Below, piece by piece: positions 12,206 to 55,461 of a DNA stretch of 64,000 nucleotides (position 1 is the first letter of the stretch; each line of letters starts with the position of its first letter). The stretch is taken from the NCBI GenBank assembly GCA_032209605.1, contig JASFXZ010000009.1:18463553-18527552 (forward strand), in the 5' to 3' direction. This stretch comes from Mactromeris polynyma. Its lineage: Eukaryota; Mollusca; Bivalvia; Venerida; Mactridae. Below the pieces are notes generated by a model. It was not told the DNA's origin. It saw nothing but the letters and a program-made list of their open reading frames with translations, and did no database searches. The translations under genes were made by a program, and so were the position numbers.

Positions 12206-14090
12206 TATCAATGTAACTGAATGAATGGAGGAAATTATTGGTTGATGCCCATATTGCAGCCCAACATGTAATAACAGCAAGGTGTTTATTATACGTGCAT
12301 ACATTTACACAAATATGAAAATGAATTTCTTGAACCTATCATATGTTAAAGTAGATACATTGTTGTACATAGTTGAATGTTATTATGATTATTATGTTAT
12401 TATGATTTTTTTGATGAGAATATGTTATAAATAAAATCCCTTATTTTGAAGGAATCATTCTACGCGTCCATTGTTTTGAAATAATTATTTGAACAGATTC
12501 TAAGCGTTTTAAAAAGTTTTCAGGAAAAAAAATCATTGATGAAGCAAAATGGTTAACTTAATAAGAGAAAATGTGTTCAATACTTTACGATTATTACAAT
12601 TCATATTTCCTAATATTTATGAAAAAGTGTAATGATTTTGAAGTAACATTTATCTAAATATGATAAAAGACAACTACCTGCTACCTTACAAGAACATGTC
12701 AGACCAGGATTCGAACCTGGGACCTTCTCATGAACATTAGTTATATCAACAGTTCGGAGATGCTCTTCCATCTGAGCTATCCAACATATTCACAAAGCAA
12801 GGTAATGCTTTCAATTAGAAATACCACTCGGACACCATATGAGCCTCGTCTAAAACTAATGCACATACACGTTCTTGATACAACCGAGAATGCAGGATTT
12901 TCATTACATTACTGTTGAACATGGCCTCAGGATGAGAATAAACATATTACTGCATCCTTTCTTTAATTCACTCAGTGACATGGTAGCGGGTAGTCTAACT
13001 CTTTCTGTGGTTAAATCTAGAAAAATAAAACAGCAAAACACTCAATTTACTTCATGCATATTTCTGTTTTCCAAGGTGCAACCAATTCAGATCCACACTA
13101 TTACTATGTATACATGTACAGTGTGCAATGTGTTTAACATGTGTGTTTGTAAGCATTATTGGTATTGCTTGCTATAACACGTTTTCATTTGGTTGGTTCG
13201 AGTTCAAAATTTAATGTTTAATGAAAATTTATAATAATTAAGAAAAAAACACAATGTGCTTTTTGCATGTTTTTTACCATATATGTATTACCTTCATTTA
13301 CTGCTACATGTGTGTTATGAGTTGCAATTTGCAAATGTTTGTTATATTGTACATGGCAGTGCTAAGCTTACTATTTCTTGCTTGTAGATCTCATAGCATT
13401 ATATTGTTCAGAATGTAAAAAAGTATAACTTACAATACTACTGATGATGTATACATGTATAATATTACATATGTTGTGCATTTACGGAATAATGATGGAA
13501 TCACAATAATGTTATATTCTCATACATGTATTATGTACAGGTCGGTTTAAATATTAAATCGCATAAATATCATTGTGGTATTTTTTTGTACTACTGACTT
13601 TGTGAATGAATATATATATTACTTCACTTGACAGTAAGACTTGCTCATTTGCACTGATATGCAGGATCTGGGTATAAAATTATCACACTTGAGTCCAAAT
13701 ATACAGGCTTCAAGTAAAGGATAAGTTAAAAAAAATACAAGGTGTATAAAAACCTTCTGAATTGATAGTATAGAACAATGCAATTCTCAGACAAATTACT
13801 CGCAATGTTTTGCACATAATTTATTTTTAGATGATTTTCGATTTTGACCAGCGACATTTAGTCATATCAGTCTGGAGCTGACAATGATATGCCTCATCAT
13901 GATGGTAATATGTTATGCACATATTTTTGGCAGTAGATCTAGATCTAGTTATGAGTATGGGTTAGTAATCCTTGACGTGTTAACAAAATATTTTTAAACA
14001 TAAGTTTTTGTTGTACATATATATAAAGCTATATCGGAATATCATATACCCACACATAAAATGCAACATCACACCGACTTACTACATCAT
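12206..14090. other. AT-rich intergenic DNA
   Basis: Apart from the tRNA-like locus at 12697-12786 this stretch is AT-rich with scattered short open frames. None shows a domain or plausible splice structure. I see no gene in it. Confidence 0.5.
12697..12786 (-). tRNA. tRNA-like sequence with intron-length anticodon loop (possibly SINE-derived)
   Basis: Read on the minus strand, a full cloverleaf can be drawn. A 7-bp acceptor stem pairs 12780-12786 with 12697-12703 (two G-U pairs). The D-arm has a GCTC/GAGC stem around an A-box-like TAGCTCAGATGGAAGAG. A T-arm with a 5-bp stem (12704-12720) contains a B box, GGTTCGAATCC. The anticodon stem pairs 4 of 5 bases. Its loop is about 25 nt, 18 more than usual, which would fit an intron. 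U33 is not evident and no anticodon can be assigned safely. It could be a diverged intron-containing tRNA, but a tRNA-derived SINE head or pseudogene is at least as likely. Confidence 0.45.
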
Positions 14091-18449: not shown

Positions 18450-19509
18450 GAAATTGAACTTATATATTTAAGTATTACTATTTTTTCTGTAAAATTTTAA
18501 ACACGTTTATTTGTTGGAACTTATTCAAGCACTTGTTATCTGTGTGATTTCATTGTGTTTTTTTCCTACTACAATGGCCATAAATGTTCAACCCCTCGTT
18601 CTTCTTATCGAAATTAAGTAAACCCAAAGTGATGCGTTAGAACTTTGGGTGAGTGTATAGTATGCTTATAAATGTCAAGGGAAGTAACTGCTGCGGGAGT
18701 TTGGCAATGTCAAAGTGTAATAACGCAAAAGTTGCTTCCCCTGATATTTAGATTTTCCGTTAATTTGGAAGGCTGCTGCGAGGAGTAAGGTTACGATCAA
18801 GTGTACTAACAATCGTAACTACTCGGCGGTATCCGGCAGAGCTCGGAATACATACCTCGTAAGTAAGTGGATGGATACACCCAATGTGATGCGTCCCCGG
18901 CGAATAACGCCGAGTAGATAATCACGAGATTATATTCTGAATGCATAAAATTTTTCTATTTTTCGCAACAATTCCTACAAATTGATGTTATTTCATTATC
19001 AGGGAAATATTTATTTGTCGTTCCAAATTTATTTGATGTTGGTTTCCCAAAAATATCGTATATGTCTCGATTCAATAATAGACATATCTCGGAGGCGGCC
19101 ATCTTGCGGACTACTTTCTTACCATAATATCTCCGAGGTTATTTATATCTCCGATGTTTTCCGAGTGGTGTACTAATGTAGAACTTCCTTCCCTTCATTT
19201 ATGTTTTTCTCTGAAAGAAGCACCTAGATCATCTATTTTTAATCACGGACCTGTGATTGTGATTTTCAGTAAATATAGATCAGTTTGCGGATTGTTTATA
19301 AGCGGTAAGTTAAGTTTTTACTGTTATATTTTGATACACAATTTGCTTCCGGGTTTCATATATTTACGGAACAGTACATAACAGAATGAATTATTAATAT
19401 CTGGATTCAAGTATAATTATTATCATCCAATGTATACAATTTACAATAATAATATTGACATACTGTACAAGTGCATTTATACATACATCATAGTCAAACG
19501 AAATATTAC
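18450..19509. other. Intergenic DNA left of the Polinton-like element
   Basis: No gene is visible. It contains a 41-bp word at 18811-18850/51 (AATCGTAACTACTCGGCGGT...) that recurs as an exact reverse complement at 52106-52146. It also contains a short motif CGGCCATCTTGCGG near 19085. Confidence 0.5.
18811..18851 (+). repeat. 41-bp dispersed repeat, copy 1
   Basis: The 41 bases starting AATCGTAACTACTCGG and ending AGCTCGGAATAC match the reverse complement of 52106-52146 exactly. Looser similarity extends a little to each side. This suggests two members of one dispersed family in opposite orientation. Confidence 0.7.
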
Positions 19510-19515
19510 AATACA
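19510..19515. repeat. Target-site duplication AATACA, left copy
   Basis: AATACA directly abuts the first base of the terminal inverted repeat at 19516. The same hexamer follows the last base of the element at 33847-33852. A 6-bp duplication is the length generated by Polinton/Maverick integrases. Confidence 0.8.
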
Positions 19516-19850
19516 AGTAGTAGAGGGCGTGACTCTAGGTAATTTTGTTTACTATATGTTCAATGTACATCCGCCATTTTGTGTTGAGGAGTCAATTTTT
19601 TCTCCTATACATTCCTATATGTCCAATGTAAATCCGCCATTTTGTCTTAAGGAGTCATTTTTTCTCTTCCTATATATTCAATGGAAATCCGCCATTTTGT
19701 TTTGAGGAGTCAATTTTTTCTCCTATACATTCCTATATATTCAATGGAAATCCGCCATTTTGATATGAGGAGTCAACTTTTGAGAATATAGGTACACCAT
19801 GACCCTAAGACTTCCGCCCTCTTATATGTGGGTAGTCCGTATAGGAAACT
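19516..19850 (+). repeat. Left terminus with four tandem CCGCCATTTTG units
   Basis: Four tandem units of about 55-63 bp start at about 19569, 19632, 19688 and 19751. Each begins with CCGCCATTTTG and continues with GAGGAGTCAATTTTTT and CCTATA. On the other strand the core is CAAAATGGCGG, which matches the YY1 site. The same four units stand inverted at the right end (33595-33795). Confidence 0.8.
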
Positions 19851-20189
19851 AGTTTTTTTTCTCTGTGTGTGTGTATGTGGTGTGGTGTGTTTGTGCCAGC
19901 GTCCCTCCCATCCCCGTTGATCATTGCGGGTAATGTTCTTTCACTAGATAGAGATATCTACTACAATATTTGCCTTTAACGCTTAAAGATGTGTAGGTGT
20001 GGTAGGTACATCCCAAAGATAAATATAAAGTGGATCTAACGACACAACTTTGTATTCAGATGACACCTTTAGTAGGATGTTGAGCGCGGGGGTTTAATTC
20101 AATTCTCAACCATATACTGCTTTGCTACTGGAGTATTACATATCGTTGATTAAGAATCACCAAACATAATAACAACAACAAAAGAACTT

Positions 20190-20215
20190 TTTACATGTTT
20201 TATTTATTTACAAGT
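20190..20215 (-). promoter_or_regulatory. Polyadenylation signals of left polymerase copy
   Basis: On the minus strand, about 85-105 bp after the stop codon at 20297, AATAAATAAAAC gives two overlapping AATAAA hexamers. The right arm has the same signals at about 33158-33170. This is the expected 3' end of the polymerase transcript. Confidence 0.55.
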
Positions 20216-20296
20216 TTAACATGTTCACAGTCATACAAATTGAATTATATAAAATAGTGTATAATACACACTAGAGCACAGCAAAGTCAAGCTTAA

Positions 20297-23200
20297 TTAA
20301 TAACCATAGGGGTATGACATGTAGCAGCCCTTGATTACTCTTTTATCGAATACCAGTCTATAATCTTTCTTCTGAGATGTGGTCAATAGGCGGGCGGCAT
20401 CTCGATCACGAACAATTTTGAAATGGTCAGCTACTGTAACTACATCGTCTTTGTCCTCCGTCACCATTCGCCTTAATGTATTAAAATTGATGTCCAGACA
20501 GTTCTTATAGTTGAGTGTTATACCGCGCACTTTACATTGTGTTGTCTTTCCGTCCTTGTCAGGGTTAGCCAACTGGTAGGCATAATTTTTAGTACCACCT
20601 GTTACGAACACCTTTATTGTATTATCAGGTGTCTCGTCAGTCAAGTCACCTAAATAATCGCCCAGGTTAGGTACCCATTCTCCTGGCTTTGTCAAAAAGG
20701 CGACACCATAGAGGGCACGAGGTCCTAGCCGTTCCAAATAGGAATAGAGTTTTAACCGTGCCTGAGTCGTAGTATAGGCAGCTATGACAACGTTTGTTTT
20801 CTCTGAGGTTTCAATGAACTCTTCTTTATAGTTCCATCGTAATTCTACTATGTCCTCCGAAACAAAATTCACACCAGTCACCTCCTCTCGGTCTGAAGTT
20901 AGTTTGTCAAAGTATGTGGAAGGGTCTTCAATGTATTTGACCTGAGGCATATTTGGTCTTGACCGAATTTCTCCCAAAACGAATTCAACATGAGTTTGGC
21001 CAGAGCGCGCATTCCAGGGTTCTTTTTGATATTGTTATTGTCCAACAAAATACCTTCCTTCTCATGATATAACTGAATGTATTTCTGTTTATCAACTTCC
21101 GTTTTACACCAGTCAGGCCAACCGCTGGCTTCCTGTTTAAGTTTAAGAAATGTATTAACATACTGGGTAAACAGACCCCCACTTTTTGTTTCAGTGTCAT
21201 ATTGGCATACCAGATTAAAATGCCACACTTCGTATACAGCCAGTACACGATACCCTTTTTCAATAGCCTTTTTCAATTCGTCCGTGACCCATGTACCAAT
21301 AAAACAACGTTCATCGTCAGTGTGTGTACACGACTCTTGTTGACGAGTGTCGGCACAAGTCCGACATAAAGCAAACAGTAATTTACCATTCATTTTACAT
21401 GGTAGTACTGGTGATGGTAGGATGACCTAATGGTATTTACCCCGTTTTATTGATAAACGGGTACAGTGATGTGACATCATAGTAACTGAGTGTTTCATCC
21501 CGACTACTTTCTTTAAACAATGTGAAGGCTTCTGTACGACCTCCGAAGAAAGCATCTCTGGGTTGTAGCTGAGTCACATATTCAAGACTATATACAAATG
21601 TGGCCATTTCGTCATTGTTTTTCATTTGTTGTTCAAATTCAGATTCCCAGATGGATTGGTACACGTAGCCTCTGTCCTCCAGGTATTTCTGTTTGTCTAA
21701 TGTCTTTTGATAGAGGTCGCCAATGGTTAATTTACTGACCGGATGGAGTGTAGAACTGGCATACATTTTTGGATTTCAATGCCAAAAATCCCACTTTCTG
21801 ACCATTTGTTTCATAATACCCGTCCACTTTGTAGGGTCCAATGACTTTCTCCCCGCCGTTTCGAGCGTGTTGAATACGTACATCCAGTGTATGTGATAGG
21901 TATTTAAGCCACTGGAGAGCTTTCACAGATTGAACTTGTTCGGGATTGTATCCATGCGACGGAATCAAACCTATAGTGTCTCTTTCCAGAAAGTTAGTAC
22001 GGAATACGCGCTGACAAGCCGAGGCAATGGTGATACTTTTTTCAAATGGGTCAACACCAGTAATGTGTATGAAATCCTGTCTAAATCTCAAAGCACAGCG
22101 TCTTAATATATCCACGTCTGACCTACAGTATTTAAGAAGTTCATGTTGAAAGTCGTAGGTTTTGTTTTTGTTTTCGTCATACCATTGTAAGAAATTGACT
22201 CTATCGTCAGCTTTCATAGCGTCTGGGTTGTAATAGGCCAAGTCAGGTAAATGGTCCAAGACAGTAGTCTGGTGTTCTTTCTTATTAAACAGATGTGAAA
22301 ATACCCCTTGGCTAATTCAGAAAAGCCAAACATCTTCGGGAGTTTTGACAATGCCATTGGCAGAAAGTTTAGAGAATCGATGATCTTGACTTTACTGTTA
22401 GGCTCAAACAATGACATAATCCTAGCCCCGTTTGGAATGACACTTGGCAAAATTCCATTCTTATACAAGAATCTTTGTGAACTACACAAAGATTTGGCAT
22501 ATGTTCATGAGATCCGCAAGTTGTCTTTTTACAATGAATGCATTTTCCGTTATCCCCTGGTTCGAAACCGTTTTCACACTCCACAATGTCGTCTTGGGTA
22601 CACTCAAAATCAAAGAAAATATATGTTTGTTTACTGTCTTCCTCTGTTTCTTCATCACACTCTTCAGGTTTCATATAACACTGATGTTCCTCTCCGACAA
22701 AATCTTTACACGTGTCGCAGTATTTTCCCCCACAGACATGTTTTCCATTACACATGGTTCTGTTTATAGTTTTAGAACACTCTACACAGCGGTAATAGGT
22801 TTTACAGGCCGAATTTCCCTTGGCAGTTTGTTTTTTGTGTAAGTTGAAACACATGTGTCCCTTGAAATATCTGTTACACTCAGAACAATGTATCCAGTCT
22901 TCTTCGCCTGACTCGTGTATTTTGTAACAGGCATGGCAAACGTTGTTACATTTGTGTTTCTCCTTGTGGTCGTATCCTTTCTGACATGTTGTACAGAAAT
23001 AACTCCTTCCTAAAAACGCAGGCATACTCGTAATGACGTCGTAGTGTTTGTCATGATAATACAAGAATATCTTGTTGTCAGAGTCCGGTCCTTTGTAAAT
23101 AATACTATTGAAATGGTCTTTTGAAATCACGTACAGCTGGTACTTAGGTAAAGCAGCCTGGAACTTTTTTAATTCATTAACACCGCATATGCCTAGTGAC

Positions 23201-23335
23201 ACGTCAGCCTCGTTATGTAAATGTGAGGCCAGTTGTCCTTATGGTACATCCCTTACGTATGCTCTCCCATTTTTCATGTTTGTCCAGTCTCGCTTTCGCT
23301 GTAACAATGGCTCTAGCACCATGAGCGGTTCCTAG
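20297..23335 (-). pseudogene. Protein-primed DNA polymerase B, left-arm copy (broken)
   Basis: Family B replicative polymerase of the protein-primed type. In order from 23335 downward: a Cys-rich multi-finger region (CTTCQKGYDHKEKHKC and several Cys-x2-Cys pairs), Exo I FFDFECT, Exo III LLKYCRSDVDIL, motif A YYDVTSLYP, motif B KLMLNSFW and the C-terminal end MSYPYGY at 20297. Breaks: a 2-nt loss near 23250; a ~190-bp deletion near 22495 that removes Exo II; a -1 frameshift near 22305; a 17-bp deletion near 21770; an in-frame TAA at 21437-21439; an ~80-bp deletion near 21410; a 1-nt loss near 20965; and a small deletion near 20708 that removes the motif C aspartates. The region upstream of 23335 (polymerase N-terminal section and C2H2 gene) is also missing. 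The product cannot be functional. Confidence 0.9.
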
Positions 23336-23640
23336 TATTAGTTTTAGTCACCACCTTACACCAATACTAAGTCGGTCTAACGACACCTCCATACTCATGG
23401 TAGTCTCCATCATGTTTTACTAGTTAAACGATATGATGTTTCACTATGAACAATGACAGTATACTATTCATTAAGTTGTTTAGATAGCATACCACCAAGG
23501 AGTCCGCAGTACACATATTGAGAACTTGTAGAAATTGAGGTTTGTACCTATCTCATTCTAGACGGAGAAATTCCTACTTTTCATTGCTTTCAGTACTTTG
23601 ATTTGTTACCGGGAGTAGCGTCATAAGCGCGTTATTGGTC
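23320..23640. repeat. Inner palindrome segment, left
   Basis: 23320-23545 is the near-exact reverse complement of 24290-24520. The next block, 23580-23630, matches the reverse complement of 24656-24706 (core TTGTTACCGGGAGTAGCGTCATAAGCG). Counting outward from the polymerase, the two blocks lie in opposite order in the two arms, so the tip of the palindrome has been rearranged. Confidence 0.75.
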
Positions 23641-24289
23641 AGTTTTCTGTTTAAAGACTAAATGTTGGTAACGTTTGTAGAGTTGAAATAGCGCGAAAAA
23701 AGCAAGATCGTCACATGTTATCCAGTGAGTCACCAAATTCTATCTCTCTCACCTGACACGCGTACATCTTAGACTCAGTGCTATGGATTGAGAGATGACA
23801 GCCCCGGTTTAGCGTTGATACAACTCGTTGTCTTATCAGAATTTAAAGTGTAAACGCTAATCATAGTTTTTTTGTTTTTATTTGTTGTTGTTGTAATAGT
23901 ATCAATACATTCTGCTATATTTTTATAGATTCAAGTCTAAATCAGAGTTTATACACTTTCAGGTAATAAAAAAGAGATTAACGAATCCAGTTCACCTCAT
24001 AGATTCGAAGGTTCGAGCCCACGGTCGTAAAGCCGAAACCTCACGGTTTCAAGGCTGACACCGTCCATCAACAAGGACCCCGTGAACAATGATTCTTTCT
24101 CATGAGGAGGACAGGAAGGGTTTAAGCGTACACGTGTTGCATTTGTGACATACCCAACCTCGCCTTAGAGAAATACTCACACGTATGCACACAGTGGGGC
24201 AAACCTCTCAAAATAAACACCTTACAGTCATGCATACTTAAAATATTTGTTTATATTTACATGGAATAGAAATATTTCAATTGTTCATG
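23641..24289. other. Asymmetric centre of the palindrome
   Basis: About 650 bp between the inner inverted blocks has no partner that I can see. At 24010-24020 it holds GGTTCGAGCCC, a Pol III B-box match, inside a GC-richer patch (23985-24085). No A box could be placed with confidence. It may be a fragment of a tRNA-derived SINE. No coding sequence is recognisable. Confidence 0.5.
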
Positions 24290-24735
24290 TACAAACCTCA
24301 ATTTCTACAAGTTCTCAATATGTGTACTACGGACTCCTTGGTGGTATGCTATCTAAACAACTTAATGAATATTATACTGTCATTGTTCATAGTGAAACAT
24401 CATATCGTTTAACTAGTAAAATATGATGGAGACTACCATGAGTATGGAGGTGTCGTTAGACCGACTTAGTATTGGTGTTAGGTGGTGTACAAAAGTAATA
24501 CTAGGAACCGCTCATGGTCACCACGAAGCGTTAAAGGCGAGGTAAAGATGGAGTGGCACCGTCTAGTGAGAGGCCATGACCCTCAATGATCGTTATCCTC
24601 ACTAGATCGGGTATGCAAGTCAGCTCTGTATACCATATGTGTGCTATCTTAAAACTCGCTTATGACGCTACTCCCGGTAACAAATCAAAACACTGAAAGT
24701 AATGAAATGTATAAATTTCTCAGTCTAATAAGATG
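24290..24735. repeat. Inner palindrome segment, right
   Basis: Partner of 23320-23640: 24290-24520 matches 23320-23545 inverted, and 24656-24706 matches 23580-23630 inverted. The 135 bp between the two blocks (24521-24655) has no left-arm equivalent. Confidence 0.75.
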
Positions 24736-25007
24736 ACCTTGTATTCAATGTATGTAGATATTACAAGACAATGCAAACCACCTCTGTATAATGTATAACA
24801 CAGTTTTTGTTGTTGTTGTCGTTAGAGAACAAATACAACATTTTGAAAATAAATAAATAAAGGCACTTTGTCGATTAATCACTTTCATTAAAGTATGTTT
24901 ATATACCCCTTACCCCTTCAAACGATTTAAACATTCACTATTTTCATACAATCAAGTGATAAAAAAAAGACCAATCAGAGTGCAGGATTAGTCAAGCGTG
25001 CTCTTGA

Positions 25008-25072
25008 AAATGTATAAGGGTAGGTGTGTACCTCATATTTCATTATCGCTCCAGACACAGAAGTAAACAGAC
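25008..25072 (+). promoter_or_regulatory. Candidate promoter / leader of the C2H2 gene
   Basis: A TATA-like TGTATAAG lies at about 25011, about 60 nt before the ATG at 25073. Between them is a short leader (ATTTCATTATCGC...AACAGACATGG) with a purine three bases before the ATG. This is only a sequence-based suggestion. Confidence 0.35.
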
Positions 25073-25411
25073 ATGGTTTTAAACTGTCCAGAGTGTGATT
25101 TTGCTGCCGCTAAGAAAAAACAGCTACTACAGCATCAACGATCATCTAATCACTGGAGACGTTTCCGGTGTAACTTATGCGGGGTCGTGTTCACTAGGAA
25201 AACTAACTTGGACCGTCATCTTGAGAGACATAGGGTTCCGAACAACGTTCATTGTTCCGAATGCGGTAGTGCCTTCTCCCGCCAAGACAAACTACAACGT
25301 CACATGCTAGAAAAACACCAAATTGGTGGTGGTGTCAAGAGGAGTTTAGATACCTCTGAAATAGGGCCGGTCAAACGTCTTCGGAAAGACGATGATCCCC
25401 GTCAATTTTAA
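25073..25411 (+). CDS. Small C2H2 zinc-finger protein of the Polinton-like element
   Basis: An intact 112-residue frame with three C2H2 fingers in a row: CPECDFAAAKKKQLLQH..NH (residues ~5-27), CNLCGVVFTRKTNLDRHLERH (~34-54) and CSECGSAFSRQDKLQRHMLEKH (~61-82). A basic tail with PVKRLRK looks like a nuclear localisation signal. It probably binds nucleic acid in the nucleus. It starts 65 bp after a TATA-like box and ends 3 bp before the ATG of the polymerase N-terminal frame, so the two are probably on one transcript or were once one product. It is the only undamaged gene of the element, and the left arm lacks it. Its role in the element's life cycle is unknown. Confidence 0.75.
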   Translation: MVLNCPECDFAAAKKKQLLQHQRSSNHWRRFRCNLCGVVFTRKTNLDRHLERHRVPNNVHCSECGSAFSRQDKLQRHMLEKHQIGGGVKRSLDTSEIGPVKRLRKDDDPRQF

Positions 25412-27338
25412 GTCATGACGAAGATCAAGGAACAGAAAATGAAAAAGTTTAGAACGACTGCCTCCACATACCGCGTACAGTTTAGAAGTATTGATGTGGA
25501 TGACGTCACGGATATATTGAAAACATTGAAACGTACGTTTGCTGCCATATTGGAGGACGTGACGTCACATGCCAAGACAGGAGATTTAATACGTATGACG
25601 GTACAGAGTCCTACATTGGACTATCCTATAGTGGTACCGATTCTGCGTCTCCATGAAGTCACGGTTGACAGGTTTCTGTCTGAAGTGGAACGAGTACTTC
25701 AATCCAACGAAGACTTTGTGATTGATGAAGGATTAGAGATTGACATCATACACGTGGATATGCCTAACGGTAGCGGTCTTAAAAAGCGCACCTTTGCGAA
25801 TATAGACAGAATTTTGAAAGAAAAAACAATGTATTATACGAATACAAAATGCCGATGAATTATGCTGTGCTAGAGCCATTGTTACAGCGAAAGCGAGACT
25901 GGACAAACATGAAAAATGGGAGAGCATACGTAAGGGATGTACCATACAAGGACAACTGGCCTCACATTTACATAACGAGGCTGACGTGTCACTAGGGATA
26001 TGCGGTGTTAATGAATTAAAAAAGTTCCAGGCTGCTTTACCTAAGTACCAGCTGTACGTGATTTCAAAAGACCATTTCAATAGTATAATTTACAAAGGAC
26101 CGGACTCTGACAACAAGATATTCTTGTATTATCATGACAAACACTACGACGTCATTACGAGTAAGTCTGCGTTTTTAGGAAGGAGTTATTTCTGTACAAC
26201 ATGTCAGAAAGGATACGACCACAAGGAGAAACACAAATGTAACAACGTTTGCCATGCCTGTTACAAAATACACGAGTCAGGCGAAGAAGACTGGATACAT
26301 TGTTCTGAGTGTAACAGATATTTCAAGGGACACATGTGTTTCAACTTACACAAAAAACAAACTGCCAAGGGAAATTCGACCTGTAAAACCTACTACCGCT
26401 GTGTAGAGTGTTCTAAAACTATAAACAGAACCATGTGTAATGGAAAACATGTCTGTGGGGGAAAATACTGCGACACGTGTAAATATTTTGTCGGAGAGGA
26501 ACATCAGTGTTATATGAAACCTGAATAGTGTGATGAAGAAACAGAGGAAGACAGTAAACAAACATATATTTTCTTCGATTTTGAGTGTACCCAAGACGAC
26601 ATTGTGGAGTGTGAAAACGGTTTCGAACCAGGGGATAACGGAAAATGCGTTCATTGTAAAAAGACAACTTGCGGATCTCATGAACATATGCCAAATCTTT
26701 GTGTAGTTCACAAAGTGTGTTCGGAATGTATGAATGAAAGCGTGACCAGCACGAGTGAATGTAATTTGTGTGGACAGAATGAATTCGTGTTTTCTGGTGC
26801 TGATACAGTAGATGCTTTTTGTGACTGGTTGTTTTCAGAAGACAACTATGCGGCTATTGTAATTGGTCATAATTTTCAGGGTTATGATTCCTACCCCATA
26901 TTAAGATTCTTGTATAAGAATGGAATTTTGCCAAGTGTCATTCCAAACGGCTTACAGACTTTTCAACCCCAAGACTTTTCAACCCCACTTTTCAAATGAA
27001 GATTTTTCAACCCCATGACTTTTCAACCCCTGATTTCAAGACTTTTCAACCCCTACCTGTTGAGACTTTTCAACCCCTAGTTTGAATATTTTCAACCCCT
27101 ACATTTATCTTTCTCAACCCCTACTTTGAAGACTTTTCAACCCCTATTTCTTTTTTTTATCATTTTCTATTTTATTAAATATACTGGTGTCTAACAATTC
27201 ACTTATTTCATGCGTAACTCTAATTCGTAAATAAAGGAAAACAATTCCTCTCAAAATGTCATCGAAAAATATATTTAATGACGTAATCACATAAACAAGT
27301 CTCTGACGTCATTCAGTATACACGCGTTCAGCGTGTCC

Positions 27339-27381
27339 GTTCAATCTGGGACCAATATATACATGTTGGTCCCAGGTTGAA
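27339..27381. repeat. Hairpin inside the foldback-like element
   Basis: TTCAATCTGGGACCAA pairs with TTGGTCCCAGGTTGAA across a 10-nt loop (27356-27365). The stem is 16 bp with one mismatch that becomes G-U in one RNA strand. Function unknown. Confidence 0.6.
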
Positions 27382-29073
27382 TCTCTCTGACTCGGATTGC
27401 AATCAAGTGTACTGAATTTAATACATTTTGATTGATAAAGGACTGAGCTCTTGTGCAAAGATAAATATATTTTTTAAAAGTTCCTGTGTAAACTGAAAAT
27501 GTATTGATAAGGTCTGAAACATAAATCATTTGAGATGGAATAAACTCACTTAATTGGATATGTACGTTTGAAGAATTTTGCTGAACATGCTTAGTAAATC
27601 TGTCATATAAGTAACTTGCTTGTTAACGGTAAATGTTACAATATTTATGTTTTCTGTTTGCTGCAGTGTTCATGAGGGTTCTTATTTAATACATCAAAAG
27701 TGTTAAATATTTTTCATCATTATTCGTTTTGTAAATTGTAAACAAGCAGCGTATAATTTTCATTTAGGTTTTTCCGCTCATTTGCGTAGTATATGCACAC
27801 TGTGCAATATGATATTAACTGTTATTGTATCGTAGAAACATACACGGATATGTGATAACTCGTCTGAACAGATGGTCGGTTTTATTTGAAAATAAAACAA
27901 TGATATTGCAAATATTTGATCGTTGCGTGCACGTCATATGATGCATGTTTTTGTCACTGATGGGTACAAGGCATATCATGTTCCTGAAAGAGATATTTGA
28001 ATTTGAAACATAACTTCTTATTTGTTATTCAGGTAATTAATACGAATGCCTTAACTTTAATAAAAACGACAATATTTAGCTGTATGCGCGTTAAATTAGT
28101 CATGTACTGGATATTAACATTTTTCCTTTTGTAATGTTACACCACTTGAAACATAAACATGTATGTATATATCTTTTGCGCATTAAACTACAACGAAAGG
28201 TATAGACAGTAGTAAATGCATGTTATTGTAAATCACAATTCGCAATTCGAAAATTGCATTCCTTTAATTTGTCATTATATTTTGTTTGATCATCATAATA
28301 ATTAGCAGATTATTTGTTTAATACAATTAAATGCTTGTTTGTTTTTATTTGTTGCACTTGTTTAATGGATCAAAGGCAATTGTGTTCTATTGATGTAACC
28401 ATCACACTTTTAATTATGTGTAAACTGTCAATTGTACGTTGTTTAAGGTGATATATGCCCGCTAAATGCCTTGAAATGGTATTGTTATTATATATATAGG
28501 TGAATGAATCAGTATATTCTCACAATTGTCTAAAATTGGATAAGTCGTTAAGACTTATATGAATGTATATCAGTAGGTCCTTCTTAAAATGCCTTTATCA
28601 ATTAATATATGTTTTATATATAGTACCTAAGATTGCAGATGCCATAATAATTATTAAGATATATATTCTCTTTTATCACCGATTTTGATAGAGTAATACA
28701 GGTTGAAACAAATAAATATATATAATGTGTCTTAAAACATAATGATTTCCGAACTTTGTTTAGGTTTAACCAATAACTCAACTCAATCATATTTATTGAA
28801 TAAAACATTCGTAGGCCTACATGTGTAAAGCATACAATACAATATAATACATAATGTAGAGAAAGTCGTTACATAAGCAAAGTGGTCAATGAAAATATAT
28901 ATACATGTACCAGATATATCTCAGTCTATCTGTACCAATAAAGAAACACAAATTCAACATATACAGATGACATGAGGAAAGGGCAATTATTGAGTTCTAA
29001 TATCATTTGCATAATAAATTAATTTTGAAAGGTTTATCAATTCAATCTTTGAGTCAGTGCTTAAATAAAATGT

Positions 29074-29371
29074 ATTGTTATGTTTGTTGACTGTGTTACG
29101 TAATGACGCGTGCTCGCTTAGCGAGGTGATTAACAAGGTGAGAAGCCGCTGTAGTGGGTGATTAGATAAGATGATAAGATTTAGGCGTGCTACTATTGAT
29201 ATTTATTTTTCAGAAATAAGGAATAGTTAGTTAAATACAATTATTAAAATCGACCAAATATCATTAATATAAACAGTTTTTTGATATAGCAAATGGTCAA
29301 TGATTAATGATCGACTATACCAATAAAGACAATGTAATTGTTATGTTTGTTGACTGTGTTACGTAACGACT
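29074..29371. repeat. Direct repeat in foldback interior
   Basis: TTGTTATGTTTGTTGACTGT followed by GTTACGTAA[TC]GAC occurs at about 29074-29107 and again at about 29338-29371. This indicates an internal duplication of roughly 264 bp spacing within the non-coding interior. Confidence 0.6.
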
Positions 29372-29560
29372 CTGGGACAAGTATGATGAACGGGACATTG
29401 TATGCGAGGATTTTCTGCGTGAAGTCGGCGAGATAAACGGTTAAGTGTATGTGCAAGTAATTGTGACAGTGTGAATAAATAGTGTGCCAGTGTGAAATAA
29501 AGTGTTTCTGAGTCAATGTACGTGCCAGTTTGAATAAAAAGTGTTTGAATAGTTTCAATT

Positions 29561-29599
29561 GGTGAAGCAGTCTCGGCAAATTCCTGAGACTGCTTTACC
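29561..29599. repeat. Hairpin with 14-bp stem
   Basis: GGTGAAGCAGTCTC (29561-29574) pairs with GAGACTGCTTTACC (29586-29599) at 13 of 14 positions, leaving an 11-nt loop. It lies in the foldback interior, outside any coding sequence. Confidence 0.6.
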
Positions 29600-32500
29600 A
29601 ATAATACGTATTACCATTTCCTTACAGTATATATAGTTTATTATAGTGTCAAACATAAAATATTACAGTACATTTTACAAAGTAAAAAAAAACATAAAAT
29701 ATTTTGTGCTCAGCCACACTTGGCTTACTAGACACTGACTAATTAACACAATATCACAGAATATCTACAATGCAATGTTGTTTGTACTTCAACATTGATA
29801 AAATATTATGAAGTATCATATATGTAATTAAAACACACAAAATCAATTTCGATTTGTATACAAAATGTGACAAATGCAATTAACTTTAATTGAAGGAGAA
29901 AGTGGAAGAGCAAAAACTTAAAAACTTACAAACGTAGCTATACAAATATAAGCAGAATTATTGCAATTGTTATAGAAAATTTTTAATCTGCTGTCTTCAT
30001 AAGTTTTTGCTATTCCATGTATGTTAAAGCTAGCTATGATGTCATGTCTTATACACTGTAAAATAATTGCATAACAAAAATAAAAAAATAATAAAAAAAG
30101 AAGAACAGAGGGATTATCATGTGTACAATAAGTCGATTCTGTTCTTACATGTATAGTGTCAAATTTTCGTTTCGTTTGAACTAAACATACTCCGTGAGGT
30201 CAAATATTAACATAATGTGAGACTAGTTACGTGCAAGAGACTTGATGTTTTATTCTATTCTATTGGCTATGTATTCGTCCTTTTTTCCTTTCTATATGCT
30301 GTATATAGTAATATAGTATTCAATATTGTTCCTTTATATATGTATATATTCATAAATAATTGTTAAACCATATATCTCCAGAAAATGGAGGCAATAAAGT
30401 TATGTATATATAAATAAATAATGTTTGAGTGTAAGTGACAGCGTAATTAGACTTAATTAGAATAACAAATCACATCATCAATTAAATACCAATTTAATTC
30501 CACCTGCAGTTTTAGGCCAAATAAAATGTGATAGAATGGCTGTGTGTATTTTGTGTGTATATATCTTTATTAGTATTCATTCTGGAATGTAAATAAACTT
30601 AAAAATTAAACTTAAACAACGTGATTGTCAACATTTTTCCAGGTAACAAATGTGATAATTGTCCAATTAAAAACATATTCGAGGGGTTGAAAAGTCTTGG
30701 TTTATTAGGGGTCGAAAAGTCTTGATTTTAACAGGGGTTGAAATGTCTTAGGCTAATTAGGGGTTGAAAATGACAGTGGGGTTGAAAAGTCTTGGATATT
30801 TTACCTTAGGGGTTGAAAAGTCTTGGGGTTGAAAAGTCTAGGGGTTGAAAAGTCTCGATACCATTCCAAACGGGGCTAAGATTATGTCATTGTTTGAGCC
30901 TAACAGTAAAGTCAAGATCATCGATTCTCTAAACTTTCTGCCAATGGCATTGTCAAAACTCCCGAAGATGTTTGGCTTTTCTGAATTAGCCAAGGGGTAT
31001 TTTCACATCTGTTTAATAAGAAAGAACATCAGACTACTGTCTTGGACCATTTGCCTGACTTGGCCTATTACAACCCAGACGCTATGAAAGCTGACGATAG
31101 AGTCAATTTCTTACAATGGTATGACGAAAACAAAAACAAAACCTACGACTTTCAACATGAACTTCTTAAATACTGTAGGTCAGACGTGGATATATTAAGA
31201 CGCTGTGCTTTGTGATTTAGACAGGATTTCATACACATTACTGGTGTTGACCCATTTGAAAAAAGTAGCACCATTGCCTCGGCTTGTCAGCGCGTATTCC
31301 GTACTAACTTTCTGGAAAGAGACACTATAGGTTTGATTCCGTCGCATGGATACAATCCCGAACAAGTTCAATCTGTGAAAGCTCTCCAGTGGCTTAAATA
31401 CCTATCACATACACTGGATGTACGTATTCAACACGCTCGAAACGGTGGGGAGAAAGTCATTGGACCCTACAAAGTGGACGGCTATTATGAAACAAATGGT
31501 CAGAAAGTGGTTCTTGAATTTCACGGGGATTTTTGGCATGGAAATCCAAAAATGTATGCCAGTTCTACACTCCATCCGGTCAGTAAATTAACCATTGGCG
31601 ACCTCTATCAAAAGACATTAGACAAACAGAAATACCTGGAGGACAGAGGCTACGTGTACCAATCCATCTGGGAATCTGAATTTGAACAACAAATGAAAAA
31701 CAATGACGAAATGGCCACATTTGTATATAGTCTTGAATATGTGACTCACCTACAACCCAGAGCTGCTTTCTTCGGAGGTCGTACAGAAGCCTTCACATTG
31801 TTTAAAGAAAGTAGTCGGGATGAAACACTGTCACATCACTGTACCCGTTTATCAATAAAACGGGGTAAATACCATTAGGTCATCCTACCATCATCACTGA
31901 AGATTTCGACAGTATCGACACATATGAAGGTATCATTAAATGTAAGGTCATACCACCCACAGGTCTCTTCGTACCTGTACTACCATGTAAAATGAATGGT
32001 AAATTACTGTTTGCTTTATGTCGGACTTGTGCCGACACTCGTCAACAAGAGTCGTGTACACACACTGACGATGAACGTTGTTTTATTGGTACATGGGTCA
32101 CGGACGAATTGAAAAAGGCTATTGAAAAGGGGTATCGTGTACTGGCTGTATACGAAGTGTGGCATTTTAATCGGGTATCCCAATATGACAATGAAACAAA
32201 AAATGGGGGTCTGTTTACCCAGTATGTAAATACATTTCTTAAACTTAAACAGGAAGCCAGCGGTTGGCCTGACTGGTGTAAAACGGAAGTTGATAAACAG
32301 AAATACATTCAGTTATATCATGAGAAGGAAGGTATTTTGTTGGACAATAACAATATCAAAAAGAACCCTGGAATGCGCGCTCTAGCCAAACTCATGTTGA
32401 ATTCGTTTTGGGGGAAATTCGGTCAAAGACCAAATATGCCTCAGGTCAAATACATTGAAGACCCTTCCACATACTTTGACAAACTAACTTCAGACCGAGA

Positions 32501-33149
32501 GGAGGTGACTGGTGTGAATTTTGTTTCGGAGGACATAGTAGAATTACGATGGAACTATAACGAAGAGTTCATTGAAACCTCAGAGAAAACAAACGTTGTC
32601 ATAGCTGCCTATACTACGACTCAGGCACGGTTAAAACTCTATTCCTTTTTGGAACGGCTGATTCAGTCGTCTTTTCGACAAAGCCAGGAGAATGGGTACC
32701 TAACCTGGGCGACTATTTAGGTGACTTGACTGACGAGACACCTGATAATACAATAAAGGTGTTCGTAACAGGTGGTCCTAAAAAATATGCCTACCAGTTG
32801 GCTAACCCTGACAAGGACGGAAAGACAACACACTGTAAAGTGCGCGGTATAACACTCAACTATAAGAACTGTCTGGACATCAATGTTAATACATTAAGGC
32901 GAATGGTGACGGAGGACAAAGACGATGTAGTTACAGTAGCTGACCAGTTCAAAATTGTTCGTGATCGAGATGCCGCCCGCCTATTGACCACATCTCAGAA
33001 GAAAGATTATAGACTGGTATTCGATAAAAGAGTAATCAAAGACGGCTACATGTCATACCCCTATGGTTATTAAATAAGCTTGACTTTGCTGTGCTCTAGA
33101 GTGTATTATACACTATTTTATATAATTGTATGACTGTGAACATGTTAAA

Positions 33150-33172
33150 CTTGTAAATAAATAAAACATGTA
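33150..33172 (+). promoter_or_regulatory. Polyadenylation signals of right polymerase copy
   Basis: AATAAATAAAAC about 80-95 bp past the stop at 33073 mirrors the left-arm signals at 20190-20215. Confidence 0.55.
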
Positions 33173-33509
33173 AAAAGTGCTTTTGTTGTTGTTATTATGT
33201 TTGGTGTTTCTTAATCAACGATATGTAATACTCCAGTAGCAAAGCAGTATATGGTTGAGAATTGAATTAAACCCCCGCGCTCAACATCCTACTAAAGGTG
33301 TCATCTGAATACAAAGTTGTGTCGTTAGATCCACTTTATATTTATCTTGGGGATGTACCTACCACACCTACACATCTTTAAGCGTTAAAGGCAAATATTG
33401 TAGTAGATATCTCTATCTAATGAAAGAACATTACCCGCAATGATCAACGGGGATGGGAGGGACGCTGGCACAAACACACCACACCACATACACACACACA
33501 CAGAAAACA

Positions 33510-33846
33510 ACTAGTTTCCTATACGGACTACCCACATATAAGAGGGCGGAAATCTTAGGGTCATGGTGTACCTATATTCTCAAAAGTTGACTCCTCATAT
33601 CAAAATGGCGGATTTCCATTGAATATATAGGAATGTATAGGAGAAAAAATTGACTCCTCAAAACAAAATGGCGGATTTCCGTTGAATATATAGGAAGAGA
33701 AAAATGACTCCTTAAGACAAAATGGCGGATTTACATTGGACATATAGGAATGTATAGGAGAAAAAATTGACTCCTCAACACAAAATGGCGGATGTACATT
33801 GAACATATAGTAAACAAAATTACCTAGAGTCACGCCCTCTACTACT
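33510..33846 (-). repeat. Right terminus with four tandem CCGCCATTTTG units (inverted)
   Basis: Mirror image of 19516-19850. CAAAATGGCGGAT units start at about 33601, 33663, 33718 and 33780, and the element ends in CTACTACT at 33846. A few substitutions separate the two termini, so they have aged independently. Confidence 0.8.
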
Positions 33847-33852
33847 AATACA
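33847..33852. repeat. Target-site duplication AATACA, right copy
   Basis: Exact copy of the hexamer at 19510-19515, directly after the last inverted-repeat base. Confidence 0.8.
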
Positions 33853-33937
33853 CATGACAGACGACAGTGATACAATATGAACAAATATGAAAACAACATT
33901 ATAAATATAACATCCAAGTATGTTCTGTTCACGTAGC

Positions 33938-33968
33938 GGATCCGTGGTCCAATGGTAACGCGCTTATG
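33938..33968 (+). other. tRNA-head-like fragment
   Basis: GGATCCGTGGTCCAATGGTAACGCGC resembles the 5' end and A box of a tRNA. No B box or cloverleaf follows, so at most it is a truncated SINE or tRNA remnant. Confidence 0.25.
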
Positions 33969-33999
33969 TTTGATGGTCTTGAAGGTGCCACTCGTGAAA

Positions 34000-35240
34000 A
34001 ATTATTTGCAATTAATAGACATGTCTCTAAGTTTTGTTCTGAGGGACAACTTCAACAGAATACATATAAATGGATATTTCATAAAAGCACTGCCATTTAC
34101 CGCAATTGTTTGGGGGCTTGATGGAAGTAGATTAAGGGGTTTATTTACAAGTTATCGAACCAGTTGGCAGGGAAACCTACATTTGACATCAACAACAAGT
34201 GGCAGTTGGGCGACTCTCTTGATACCTTGACTAACGGAATCTTGAACTTTGAGTACACGACCGCAAAATCTTCATTCTACGGTCAGTCTGTTATCCGGTA
34301 TATATGGAGTTTTAATACAGTTTGTCAGGCGGACTAGTGGTCAGTCTGTTATCCGGTATATATGGAGTTTTAATACAGTTTGTCAGGCGGACTAGTGGTC
34401 AGTTCGTCTTTAGTTCTTTTTCTGATTACATCTTTATTTCTTTTGTTTGGCGCCAAGATGTTAAATTATATTTTTGGACAAGAAAAATAAACAACTTAGA
34501 AACTGTAAATGTGTGTTATTCTATGCATTGGTGAAATAAAAAAATCTTTACGATCTCGGGTTGACAGTCCTGGTGTTACATAATTATATTATGCAGTCTG
34601 GGTGGTCATTTTGAAGGGAACGGATTTATGTCCTGTTGGTTTTTTTCCAAAAGAAAATGATTTTAATTCTTAGCAATTATAAATGAAGTTAAATAAAGAC
34701 GATGTCAAGATTTTTATACAGTGTAAAATTACTTACACTCAATTGAAATTATGTAGAAAACTCCCAAAAGCATTAGTAACGTAGTAAATATATGCTGTTA
34801 CAGAGTAGGCAATTAGTTGTACCACATATCATATTCATAAAATAATGACTGTAGTATCATTAGCGTATAATGCTTAACCAATAAAAACACTTTTTTTTAA
34901 ATTCTGACATTAATCTGGAGGCAAGTGCCTTTAACATAAACGCAATCTCCTTGTCACATGAACCCCTTGGACAGTTATTTCCTTTGTAGAAATACCTCGT
35001 GCTCCATTGATATTCTGTACATGCATTATTTATCTGATATAAATCGAATGTCCGCTGATACAATGTATGATAAACTTTGTATAATTCTATGGCTGTTGAC
35101 GTGTTTGTATTCAAAGAAATATATGACTAAGTCTTTCATGCATCTATGGTATTCCCTCAGATGGAAACGATGATGAACATACATTGTAATTTGAACATGC
35201 TCTCACACATATTTGGCATGTTTCTTAACATTTTTTTACT
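34000..35240. other. Intergenic DNA with a short tandem duplication
   Basis: Apart from the 58-bp tandem repeat I see no gene. The open frame at 33952-34230 has no recognisable domain. Confidence 0.45.
34281..34396. repeat. Exact 58-bp tandem duplication
   Basis: The 58-bp unit beginning GGTCAGTCTGTTATCC and ending GGCGGACTAGT stands twice without change (34281-34338, 34339-34396), followed by the first bases of a third copy. Perfect identity implies a very recent duplication. Confidence 0.9.
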
Positions 35241-35569: not shown

Positions 35570-35639
35570 AGCTTGCAGACGTACGGTGAATTGTAAACAA
35601 ATTGTTTCCTGTTTTACATTTTGAAGTGTTATTCACATA

Positions 35640-37392
35640 AAAGTTTCCATGCTTATGTATGCAGACGACATAGTCCTCATGGCGGATAATGAAGAAAAAT
35701 TACAGGCAATGTTGGACACTGTTCACAAGTGGTGTAAACGTTGGAGGGTGCTGATTAATGCAAATAAATCAAAATGCATGCATTTTCGAAGACACAATAA
35801 CCCATGCAGTGAATTCGAATTTAAGATAGGTAATGATACATTGGAAACTGTGAAACAATACAAATATCTAGGTGTGATCTTTGAAGAAAAGAATGATAGT
35901 TCTAACAACTATAAGTCTCTTGGTAAAGCAGCCGGTCGAGCACTTGGTGCCATCATCAACAAAATTCACGACTTAAAGGAATTCGGATTTAGATCATACG
36001 AAAAACTATTTACAGCATGTGTGATACCAATTCTAGACTATTGCTCTTCAGTATGGGGGTTTAAAAGATACCAACAAATAGACAACGTGCAAAACAGAGC
36101 CATGCGCTACTTTCTTGGCGTCCATCGTTTTACTCCCATTTTGGCAATGGTTGGCGACACAGGATGGCTACCTAGCGTTTACCGACGATGGGAAAACATG
36201 CATACGACTCATCAAGATGGACGACACACGTTTAACAAAACAAATATACAACTTTGATTACCTTCAGAACAATAACAACAACAACTGGTCACGTGACATC
36301 AAAAATGTTATGACAGCACTGGGACTAATCGATAGTTTCAACAACAGAACGGTTATAAATTTACCTCAGGCACATGATTTATTAGTGAACTATTACTCAA
36401 ACAACTGGATTGAAAACGTTCAAACTATTTCAAAACTCAGGACATACCGACTCTACAAAAATAACTTTAAATGTGAAGAATATGTAAAACTGAATTTAAA
36501 TAAAAACGAACGGTCTATACTTTGTCAATTTAGATGCGGGATATTACCCCTAAGAATTGAAACTGTGAGATATACTGGGGAACAACCAAACGAGTGAGTC
36601 TGTAGACTATGTAACCTAAACCAAGTGGAGGACGAAACACATTTTCTTTTCAATTGTGAACTTTATAATGATCTTCGTGACAACTGTTTCAGTGGTCTAT
36701 TTTTAAATAGTGCCGATTTACAAGCAAATCAGAGACTTTCGTGTATAATGTCATCTAACCCACGAAAACTAGCTAAATTTCTTGTCTGTGCTTGGTTAAA
36801 AAGAAGAGACATACTGTTCCATAATTGATAAACCTGTATAAAATTATGTTTATTTTAGATTTGCATATATTTCCTGTATGTACTTATATTGTGTGCTTGC
36901 ATAGATCTGACTATGTCTAATTTCTATTTATTTGTACTGTTCTGCCCGAATGATCTGTATGATGTGTGTCTGAATGTATCTGCATTGTGTTGTTTAAGCG
37001 TGTCTGAATGTATCTGTATTATATTACTTGTTTGACTTGTATAAGTGTGAATGTATCTGTATTATATTACTTGTTTGACTTGTATAAGTGTGAATGTATC
37101 TGTATTATATTACTTGTTTGACTTGTATAAGTGTGTCTGTATGAATTTGCATTATGTTGCATGTAATGAATTGTAAAAGTGTGTCTCTATATACTTGTAT
37201 TATGTTGCCTCAGATGTATAATTATGATGTTGAAATAATTATATATATCGGAAATGTCTATTACTTCAATATGTTAAGGTGACCTATAGGCCCAATGAGC
37301 CGGGTGCTTATCTATCTGTTATTTGTAATGTATGTATATAAATGCACATGTCACTATAATCAACTATTTACTTACTTACTTACTTACTTATA
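35640..37392 (+). mobile_element. 5'-truncated non-LTR retrotransposon (LINE)
   Basis: The remnant begins inside a reverse transcriptase at MLMYADDIVLMADN, the catalytic YADD box, and continues through the thumb (W..LINANKSKCMHF, YKYLGVIF) and connection (IPILDYCSSVWG, VQNRAMRYFLG). The frame shifts near 36195 (the second part runs RLIKMDDTRLTKQIY...) and is cut by TGA near 36596, just before the terminal zinc-knuckle-like CRLCNLNQVEDETHFLFNC. Coding ends at 36828. The 3' UTR holds three 43-bp tandem repeats, and the copy ends in a (TTAC)n run at about 37368-37392, the usual simple-repeat tail. The endonuclease and the N-terminal reverse transcriptase are missing, so it is a dead 5'-truncated copy. 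I would not name the clade. Confidence 0.85.
37006..37134. repeat. Three 43-bp tandem repeats in LINE 3' UTR
   Basis: Units starting GAATGTATCTGTATTATATT begin at 37006, 37049 and 37092. A diverged unit precedes them near 36973. They lie between the LINE coding end and its TTAC tail. Confidence 0.85.
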
Positions 37393-54629: not shown

Positions 54630-55461
54630 CTGCAACAATGACAAAGATCTATAATAAAACTTCTTTCTCGAGGAGTTATTGGGACGAGGAGAATGCTCGA
54701 GATATCAATGTTTCCGCCATTTCGACGTTTTCAAACTGCTGTCGTACTGGTTCTATGATATTGTACATGAGATGCGTTTTATTATGTTTTAATGCCTGTC
54801 GTCTGTTTTCGACACTTGTATCATATTATTATGGCACTAAGTGACAAGCGTGGCTTGCTTTCTTGGGGGAGACGACCTTCAGTCGGAAGGTCAAGTTAAT
54901 AAAATTTAATGGTTAAGGTTCATGTTAAGGGGATTTTGCATATTACTATTCACTGATTTTTTTAAGTAAAATAAAAATGCAATGTGGATTATTATAAATC
55001 TAAATGTTCGTCTGGATGAGCAGATACAGATAGATTATTTGTTATTCACAAATAATGTAATTTTGAAAACAAAAATACTTAAAATGTTCAGACATTTTAG
55101 AAAATATGTAAAAAAATAACATGTTTTTTAAATAATTTCAACTATTACTTTTTTTGATCAATAAAACACTATTCTAGGTGATAGAGACAAAAGAAAGTCA
55201 AAACACTTGGATTAACTCTTAAATGTCAACAAACAAAAATGGCGGCGCCCAGTGACAACATTTGAACAAGTTCGACATCAAATTTCTACTTTGTTGATAT
55301 AATTCTAGAATAAATAAGTTCTCGTATAAGTATACCACGATAAGTTGAGAGTGACGTCATGCAATGTGTACATGGTTTGACCACCTTTATTGATCAAAAT
55401 ACTAGGTAAATCAAATAACAATCAAAACTATTTATTGTGATATTGGTTTCGTTAAACTAAC

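What the first reader, a model, noticed from the sequence alone, without database searches (positions are those of the whole stretch)
19510..33852. A Polinton-like element that integrated as a giant palindrome
Seen: a 6-bp direct repeat AATACA borders both ends of 19516-33846, and the termini are exact inverted complements starting AG. The inverted identity does not stop after a normal terminal repeat; it continues through a complete polymerase gene on each side to within about 370 bp of the centre on both arms. Known: Polintons/Mavericks integrate with 6-bp duplications, and their single polymerase gene lies near one end. Inference: the molecule that integrated already had the same terminus at both ends, like the snap-back or inverted-dimer defective genomes known for protein-primed linear DNA viruses. 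A duplication after integration would not place one clean TSD around both arms. If confirmed, this is a structural class of endogenous virus-like element: mobilised defective palindromes.
Basis: partly seen in the sequence, partly recalled or inferred. Interest (0 to 1): 0.9.

Follow-up and report, generated by a model that had tools for sequence, protein, structure and literature searches.

The report
Palindromic dead Maverick element in clam
A virus-like jumping element in what is probably a clam genome carries the same end and the same broken DNA-copying gene twice, as mirror images around one centre, inside a single insertion scar; it may be a mobilised defective genome, though a later rearrangement is not ruled out.

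Summary
The mirror-image structure is real. A 14,331-bp element (19516-33846) sits inside one 6-bp duplication (AATACA). Both ends carry AGTAGT, a terminal motif reported for Mavericks. The arms differ at 58 of 3,996 aligned bases, and both carry a Maverick/Polinton-type DNA polymerase gene pointing outward. Arm-specific deletions and a 3.9-kb nested transposon make an assembly fold-back very unlikely.

Two corrections: the left polymerase lacks its 5' part, and both arms share two polymerase lesions, so (unless conversion spread them) the gene was dead before it was doubled.

The ends are no more diverged than the arms, which favours pre-integration doubling only about 2- to 4-fold.

Best reading: a non-autonomous inverted-dimer Maverick derivative, copied and integrated by helper enzymes (0.5). 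Main rival: doubling after integration (0.33). The decisive host-genome search did not complete on all 11 tries.

The parts
19510..19515 (.). left target site duplication AATACA
33847..33852 (.). right target site duplication AATACA
19516..23319 (+). left arm, mirrored by 33846-30862 and 26950-25867
23318..23547 (+). innermost part of left arm (mirror of 24289-24518, 97%), joined to the rest after loss of 1,348 bp with 2 bp of overlap
23548..24288 (.). central unpaired loop, 741 bp; no Maverick gene recognised
24289..26950 (-). right arm, inner part; 24519-25866 is now single copy apart from the 75-bp match listed below
26951..30861 (.). nested 3,911-bp transposon of unknown family inserted in the right arm; 12-bp duplication CATTCCAAACGG at 26939-26950 and 30862-30873; AGACTTTTCAACCCC repeats near both ends
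30862..33846 (-). right arm, outer part
20297..23319 (-). left polymerase pseudogene, lacking the 5' part; ends at the PYGY stop shared with homologues
25073..33073 (+). right polymerase pseudogene: N-terminal C2H2 zinc fingers, PolB body, PYGY end; interrupted by the nested transposon, stops and frame shifts
21437..21439 (-). in-frame stop shared with 31866-31868 of the right arm
31866..31868 (+). in-frame stop shared with 21437-21439 of the left arm
22290..22305 (-). frame switch at the same place as in the right arm (about 31004)
30997..31012 (+). frame switch shared with the left arm
19552..19781 (+). subterminal tandem repeats (63/118-bp units), left
33582..33810 (-). subterminal tandem repeats, right
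23559..23633 (+). 75-bp segment, 89% inverted match to 24653-24727; makes the centre asymmetric
24653..24727 (-). partner of 23559-23633, upstream of the polymerase gene

Best explanation
A non-autonomous Maverick/Polinton derivative that integrated as an inverted dimer. Shown: two near-identical arms with the same terminus and the same polymerase pseudogene around one 741-bp loop, inside one 6-bp duplication; the two copies share two lesions and have drifted without visible constraint since. Inferred: during protein-primed, strand-displacement replication of a copy whose polymerase was already dead, a growing strand switched onto its own strand about 5-6 kb from one end. This gave a hairpin with a single replication terminus; copying it through gave a linear palindrome with that terminus at both ends. 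Helper enzymes in trans (polymerase, terminal protein, integrase) replicated and integrated it with the usual 6-bp duplication. Later deletions and a nested transposon broke the symmetry.
For: Single AATACA duplication at two intact (AGT)2//(ACT)2 termini, the commonest terminal motif of vertebrate Mavericks (PMC8097293 section 7). Arms of about 4 kb aligned, 58/3,996 differences, with no older-looking zone at the ends: 0/147, 1/265, 4/383, 6/583 and 10/773 terminal differences, one-sided Fisher p for older ends 0.71-1.0. Taking residence time from shared versus private lesions, same-age ends are favoured 2.3- to 3.9-fold over older ends. Both arms extend far beyond the 46-1,447 bp terminal repeats of intact vertebrate Mavericks. 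No part of the other half of a Maverick was recognised in the loop (9 ORFs in and beside it scanned, of 17 of at least 40 aa listed), as expected if the dimer had only one end. Mismatches by codon position are 8/14/16 (chi-square p 0.25), so no constraint is visible since doubling.
Against: The shared lesions mean the palindrome could not copy itself; trans help is assumed, not shown. A resident copy that decayed and was doubled later explains the same lesions more simply. The age test is weak and depends on my count of 2 shared against 11 private lesions. Gene conversion between arms could have homogenised both ends and lesions. No parent and no second palindromic copy was seen, because the host genome could not be searched.
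Confidence: 0.5

Rival explanations
1. Doubling after integration. An ordinary Maverick integrated, its polymerase decayed, then a break in its other half was repaired by copying from the opposite terminal repeat (in inverted orientation, on the sister or the homologue) through the polymerase, and was closed by end joining. The target duplication is untouched.
For: Explains the shared polymerase lesions with no helper. Needs only the two terminal repeats that an ordinary Maverick has. Host repair can make inverted duplications at breaks near inverted repeats (PMC10622511, abstract and outline seen), although the hairpin-capped, dicentric route described there would be expected to double the flanks too, which is not seen.
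Against: The ends should be older than the arms; they are not, but the likelihood ratio is only 2.3-3.9. The whole other half of the element must be lost, with nothing recognised in the 741-bp loop.
Confidence: 0.33
2. Two separate Mavericks inserted in opposite orientation, followed by a deletion between them.
For: Would also give two polymerase arms.
Against: The outer duplications would come from different insertions; a 6-bp match by chance has probability 4.4e-4. Shared lesions and uniform 1.45% divergence point to one recent common template.
Confidence: 0.05
3. Sequencing or assembly fold-back (chimeric read or hairpin artefact).
For: Palindromes are a classic artefact (general knowledge); no reads could be examined here.
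Against: Unique flanks on both sides with a shared duplication; 58 substitutions and 12 gap events in the aligned pieces, 187-bp and 1,348-bp arm-specific gaps, and a 3.9-kb nested transposon with its own 12-bp duplication in one arm only.
Confidence: 0.02
4. A Maverick lineage whose normal terminal repeats are several kb long and include the polymerase gene (repeat expansion as a family trait rather than an accident).
For: Terminal repeat length varies widely: 46-1,447 bp in intact vertebrate elements.
Against: The loop is only 741 bp and no integrase or capsid gene was recognised in it, so this copy at least is not an autonomous element with long repeats.
Confidence: 0.1

Closest known systems
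Polinton/Maverick elements
   Same: PF03175 family B polymerase gene near the end, (AGT)2//(ACT)2 termini, 6-bp target duplication, metazoan host; closest named polymerase relatives include the clam Mercenaria (72%) and the mussel Mytilus edulis (67%).
   Different: The same end twice; no integrase, capsid, ATPase or protease recognised in the ORFs scanned; polymerase dead in both copies.
Snap-back defective genomes of adeno-associated virus (PMC8235507, abstract and outline seen)
   Same: Fold-back ('snapback') subgenomic molecules made from one end of a linear genome.
   Different: AAV is a packaged single-stranded virus with hairpin-primed replication (recalled); here an integrated fossil of a presumably protein-primed element.
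Inverted-dimer derivatives of protein-primed replicons: palindromic derivatives of yeast pGKL plasmids and symmetric recombinant adenoviruses (recalled; not found in the listings)
   Same: Same terminus at both ends; protein-primed replication; need for helper functions (recalled).
   Different: Known as free molecules or virions, as recalled, not as integrated elements with target duplications.
Foldback/Galileo and long-TIR Mutator transposons (search listings only)
   Same: Long terminal inverted repeats; growth of such repeats by repair or recombination is recalled.
   Different: Other transposase families; their repeats do not normally contain a replication gene (recalled).

Membership tests
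[quoted passage not shown]
   PF03175 at 3.5e-18 (right) and 1.8e-10 (left); phrog_1907 DNA polymerase 1.5e-14; 999 of 1,434 candidate proteins matched at E<=1e-3, best named relative in Mercenaria. The gene is broken in both arms; protein priming itself is inferred from the family.
Polinton/Maverick | retrovirus-like integrase ('all Polintons', PMC4642659 passages) | tested here: not met
   No integrase in Pfam scans of all 19 ORFs of at least 100 aa in 19000-34400 nor in the shorter ones tried; hence filed as a non-autonomous derivative, not as a Polinton.
Polinton/Maverick | 6-bp target site duplication | tested here: met
   AATACA on both sides; chance 4.4e-4.
Polinton/Maverick | terminal inverted repeats with (AGT)2 or (AG)3 ends | tested here: met
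   AGTAGT at both termini; motif from PMC8097293 section 7, vertebrate elements.
Polinton/Maverick | capsid, ATPase and protease genes | tested here: not met
   None in Pfam scans of the same ORFs.
snap-back / inverted-dimer defective genome | one terminus present at both ends around a unique loop | tested here: met
snap-back / inverted-dimer defective genome | produced during replication and present as a molecule before integration | tested here: inconclusive
   The age of the ends against the arms favours it 2.3- to 3.9-fold only; the host genome could not be searched.
snap-back / inverted-dimer defective genome | copied by helper enzymes | not testable with these tools
   The polymerase was dead before doubling unless lesions were spread by conversion; a helper is inferred.

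The most novel reading that the evidence does not exclude
Polymerase-dead palindromic Mavericks form a mobile class of their own: defective-interfering-like inverted dimers, with two replication termini from one end, that are copied and integrated in trans by full Mavericks, so that animal genomes keep a fossil record of defective genomes of a protein-primed virus-like element.
Probability: 0.25. Interest if true: 0.78.

Novelty: new variant of a known kind. Interest (0 to 1): 0.55.

Why it matters
If the palindrome integrated as such, it is evidence that Mavericks pass through a free, linear, replicating stage that makes snap-back errors like other linear replicons, and that their replication and integration machinery can act in trans on defective molecules. 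Maverick particles had not been observed as of PMC8097293 (start of its abstract, seen in the listing). Palindromic copies could then be counted in any genome as a fossil record of defective genomes. If it was doubled after integration, it is a clear case of terminal-repeat-mediated copying that spares the target duplication, and a warning that a clean duplication does not date a rearrangement.

Tried and rejected
Assembly fold-back and two independent insertions were considered and rejected for the reasons given under rivals. I considered that 23318-24518 might be a separate transposon with 230-bp terminal repeats inserted beside a shorter palindrome. Against it: no target duplication seen, a 2-bp overlap as at a deletion join, and 97% identity like the rest of the arms; it is not fully excluded. 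I looked for relatives by polymerase and by terminus in viral contigs (4 pattern matches, none confirmed; 30, none confirmed; no match), by polymerase in prokaryote genome contigs (18 pattern matches, none confirmed) and in phage records (none); one polymerase piece against PDB sequences gave none. Rfam gave nothing in 19000-34400.

The literature claim rests on ten searches of an open-licence subset of PubMed Central. I saw 2 to 20 listed titles and abstract starts per search, often far fewer than the papers found. No listed one describes a palindromic Polinton, but most subscription papers are missing. Papers seen further: PMC8097293 (passages and section 7), PMC10294476, PMC6431247, PMC8504770 and PMC4642659 (passages), PMC8235507 and PMC10622511 (abstract and outline). 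Kapitonov and Jurka 2006 is not held.

Count caveats: private lesions were counted by hand as 6 left and 5 right, leaving out the 1,348-bp left deletion. Polymerase motif C (names of motifs recalled) is damaged in both arms by overlapping deletions of different extent; I counted these as private, but one shared older deletion under them is possible. Two lesions in the part now single copy (around 25409-25411 and 25812-25834) cannot be assigned and were left out. The 3,996 aligned columns count 5 positions twice where pieces overlap. For the shared frame switch, Pfam supports both frames only in the left arm; the right-arm piece downstream (31216-31875) has no Pfam match, and the right arm is assigned by its near-identical sequence. 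None of the fetched homologues that I matched to the arms spans that spot.
Full report
WHAT IS THERE. The element spans 19516-33846 (14,331 bp). It is bounded by AATACA on both sides, and both termini read AGTAGTAGAGGG inward; the outer 147 bp are exact inverted complements, and outside the ends only 30 of 100 bases match in inverted register. With the window's base composition, a 6-bp match at both ends has a chance probability of 4.4e-4. The inverted match continues inward in pieces as far as 23547 and 24289, leaving a 741-bp centre. Over the paired pieces 58 of 3,996 aligned bases differ (1.45%), with 12 gap events within the pieces (5 positions are counted twice where pieces overlap). A self-comparison of the whole window (blastn, E<=1e-3) lists only three inverted matches that start outside the element, the longest 45 bp.

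INTERRUPTIONS. The arms are not symmetrical today. The right arm holds a 3,911-bp insertion (26951-30861) with a 12-bp duplication CATTCCAAACGG and AGACTTTTCAACCCC repeats near both ends; none of the 7 ORFs from it that I scanned has a Pfam match, out of 30 of at least 40 aa overlapping that stretch. The left arm lacks the mirror of 24519-25866 (1,348 bp, joined with a 2-bp overlap), of 26716-26902 (187 bp), and of 80-bp and 17-bp stretches; the right arm lacks 19-, 13- and 6-bp stretches; smaller gaps occur on both sides. In the centre, 23559-23633 is an 89% inverted match to 24653-24727. This fits the left side of the loop continuing the parent sequence while the right side is the junction; that is an inference.

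GENES. Both arms carry a family B DNA polymerase gene, reading from the centre outward. PF03175 matches at 3.5e-18 (right) and 1.8e-10 (left), with further left pieces at 1e-7 and 1e-5 (the latter just below the family's cut-off). A search with one 283-aa piece gave 999 proteins at E<=1e-3 among 1,434 candidates (120 listed); named relatives include Mercenaria (72%), Mytilus edulis (67%), Ruditapes and Lingula (59% each). Nearly all aligned homologues that reach the end finish in PYGY or PYGF, as both copies do in PYGY, about 780 bp from the terminus. Upstream of the body lie C2H2 zinc fingers (25067-25408); protein P0003 aligns across fingers and polymerase N-terminus (25208-25765), so the fingers look like the N-terminus of the same protein. 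All 19 ORFs of at least 100 aa in 19000-34400 were scanned with Pfam, as were shorter ones in the loop and in the nested insertion: no integrase, capsid, ATPase or protease. Weak matches below their cut-offs (for example CadC_C1 at 0.00052, and THDPS_N at 0.00098 on an antisense ORF) are read as chance.

HOST. A BTB/BACK protein gene at 44701-46701 has its best named relative in the clam Mactra antiquata (78%; an unnamed protein is closer, 87%), then Mercenaria (68%) and Ruditapes (69%). The host is probably a heterodont bivalve near Mactra; this is an inference from one gene.

BROKEN HOW. Each arm has its own lesions. Left: a frame shift near 23240, the 187-, 80- and 17-bp losses, a 1-bp loss near 20958 and a loss in motif C. 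Right: stops at 26526-26528 and 31213-31215, a 13-bp loss in motif A, a loss in motif C and the nested transposon (motif names recalled). Two lesions are shared. One is an in-frame stop at 21437-21439 / 31866-31868; 17 of 20 rows of alignment A1 have a residue there and 3 do not cover it. The other is a frame switch near 22297 / 31004. Both arms match PF03175 up to about position 96-98 in one frame. The left arm then continues in another frame at positions 82-220; the right arm has nearly the same sequence in that frame, but its own downstream ORF piece, cut by a private stop, has no Pfam match. So, unless conversion between the arms spread these lesions, the polymerase was already dead when it was doubled. 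Differences between the arms fall 8/14/16 on codon positions 1/2/3 (chi-square p 0.25): no constraint is visible since.

WHEN WAS IT DOUBLED. It does not: copying from one terminal repeat into the other side of a resident element leaves the duplication intact. A usable difference is age: if the element sat in the genome before doubling, its ends should be older than the arms. Terminal differences are 0/147, 1/265, 4/383, 6/583 and 10/773, against about 1.5% inside, none of these contrasts being significant. With residence time before doubling estimated from 2 shared against 11 private lesions (ratio 0.39, 95% range 0.07-1.38) or against 8, same-age ends are favoured 2.3- to 3.9-fold. That is weak, and conversion of the ends would erase the signal.

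MECHANISM. Most likely (0.5), a defective copy was being replicated by protein-primed strand displacement when the growing strand switched onto its own strand. The hairpin was copied into a linear palindrome with a working terminus at each end, and helper enzymes integrated it. The steps before integration are inferred. The main rival (0.33) is doubling in place through the terminal repeats. Free palindromic derivatives of protein-primed plasmids and adenoviruses are recalled, not found in the listings; snap-back defective genomes are described for AAV (PMC8235507 abstract).

KIND. By polymerase, termini and duplication it derives from a Maverick. By the lack of an integrase, which PMC4642659 gives as universal (passage), it is not itself a Polinton. 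Intact vertebrate Mavericks have terminal repeats of 46-1,447 bp (PMC8097293 section 7), and the same paper says that 96% of vertebrate copies are defective (passage). A palindrome reaching through the polymerase is outside that range. Ten searches of an open-licence library listed no report of one (listings only, at most 20 per search).

LIMITS. 

Noticed in passing
window 26951-30861: Nested 3.9-kb AT-rich transposon with 12-bp target duplication and many AGACTTTTCAACCCC repeats facing inward at both ends; no Pfam domain in 7 ORFs scanned, family not identified.
   Followed up: partly
window 92-12212: Long AT-rich satellite array with a period near 168 bp, with a gap between about 6740 and 8130 (seen in the self-comparison).
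   Followed up: no
window 25067-25858: C2H2 zinc fingers apparently fused to the N-terminus of the Maverick polymerase; protein P0003 from another source shows the same fusion.
   Followed up: partly
window 24009-24025: GGTTCGAGCCCACGG in the central loop resembles a tRNA-type B box (motif recalled), perhaps a SINE fragment; neither Rfam nor ARAGORN finds anything there.
   Followed up: partly
window 12695-12787: ARAGORN calls a tRNA-Val (aac) on the minus strand just beyond the satellite array (bacterial settings).
   Followed up: no
window 35625-36254: Reverse transcriptase fragment (PF00078, 3e-13) just right of the element.
   Followed up: no
window 44698-46701 and 53099-54730: Host-type genes with BTB/BACK and BTB_2 domains; the first was used to place the host near Mactra.
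   Followed up: partly
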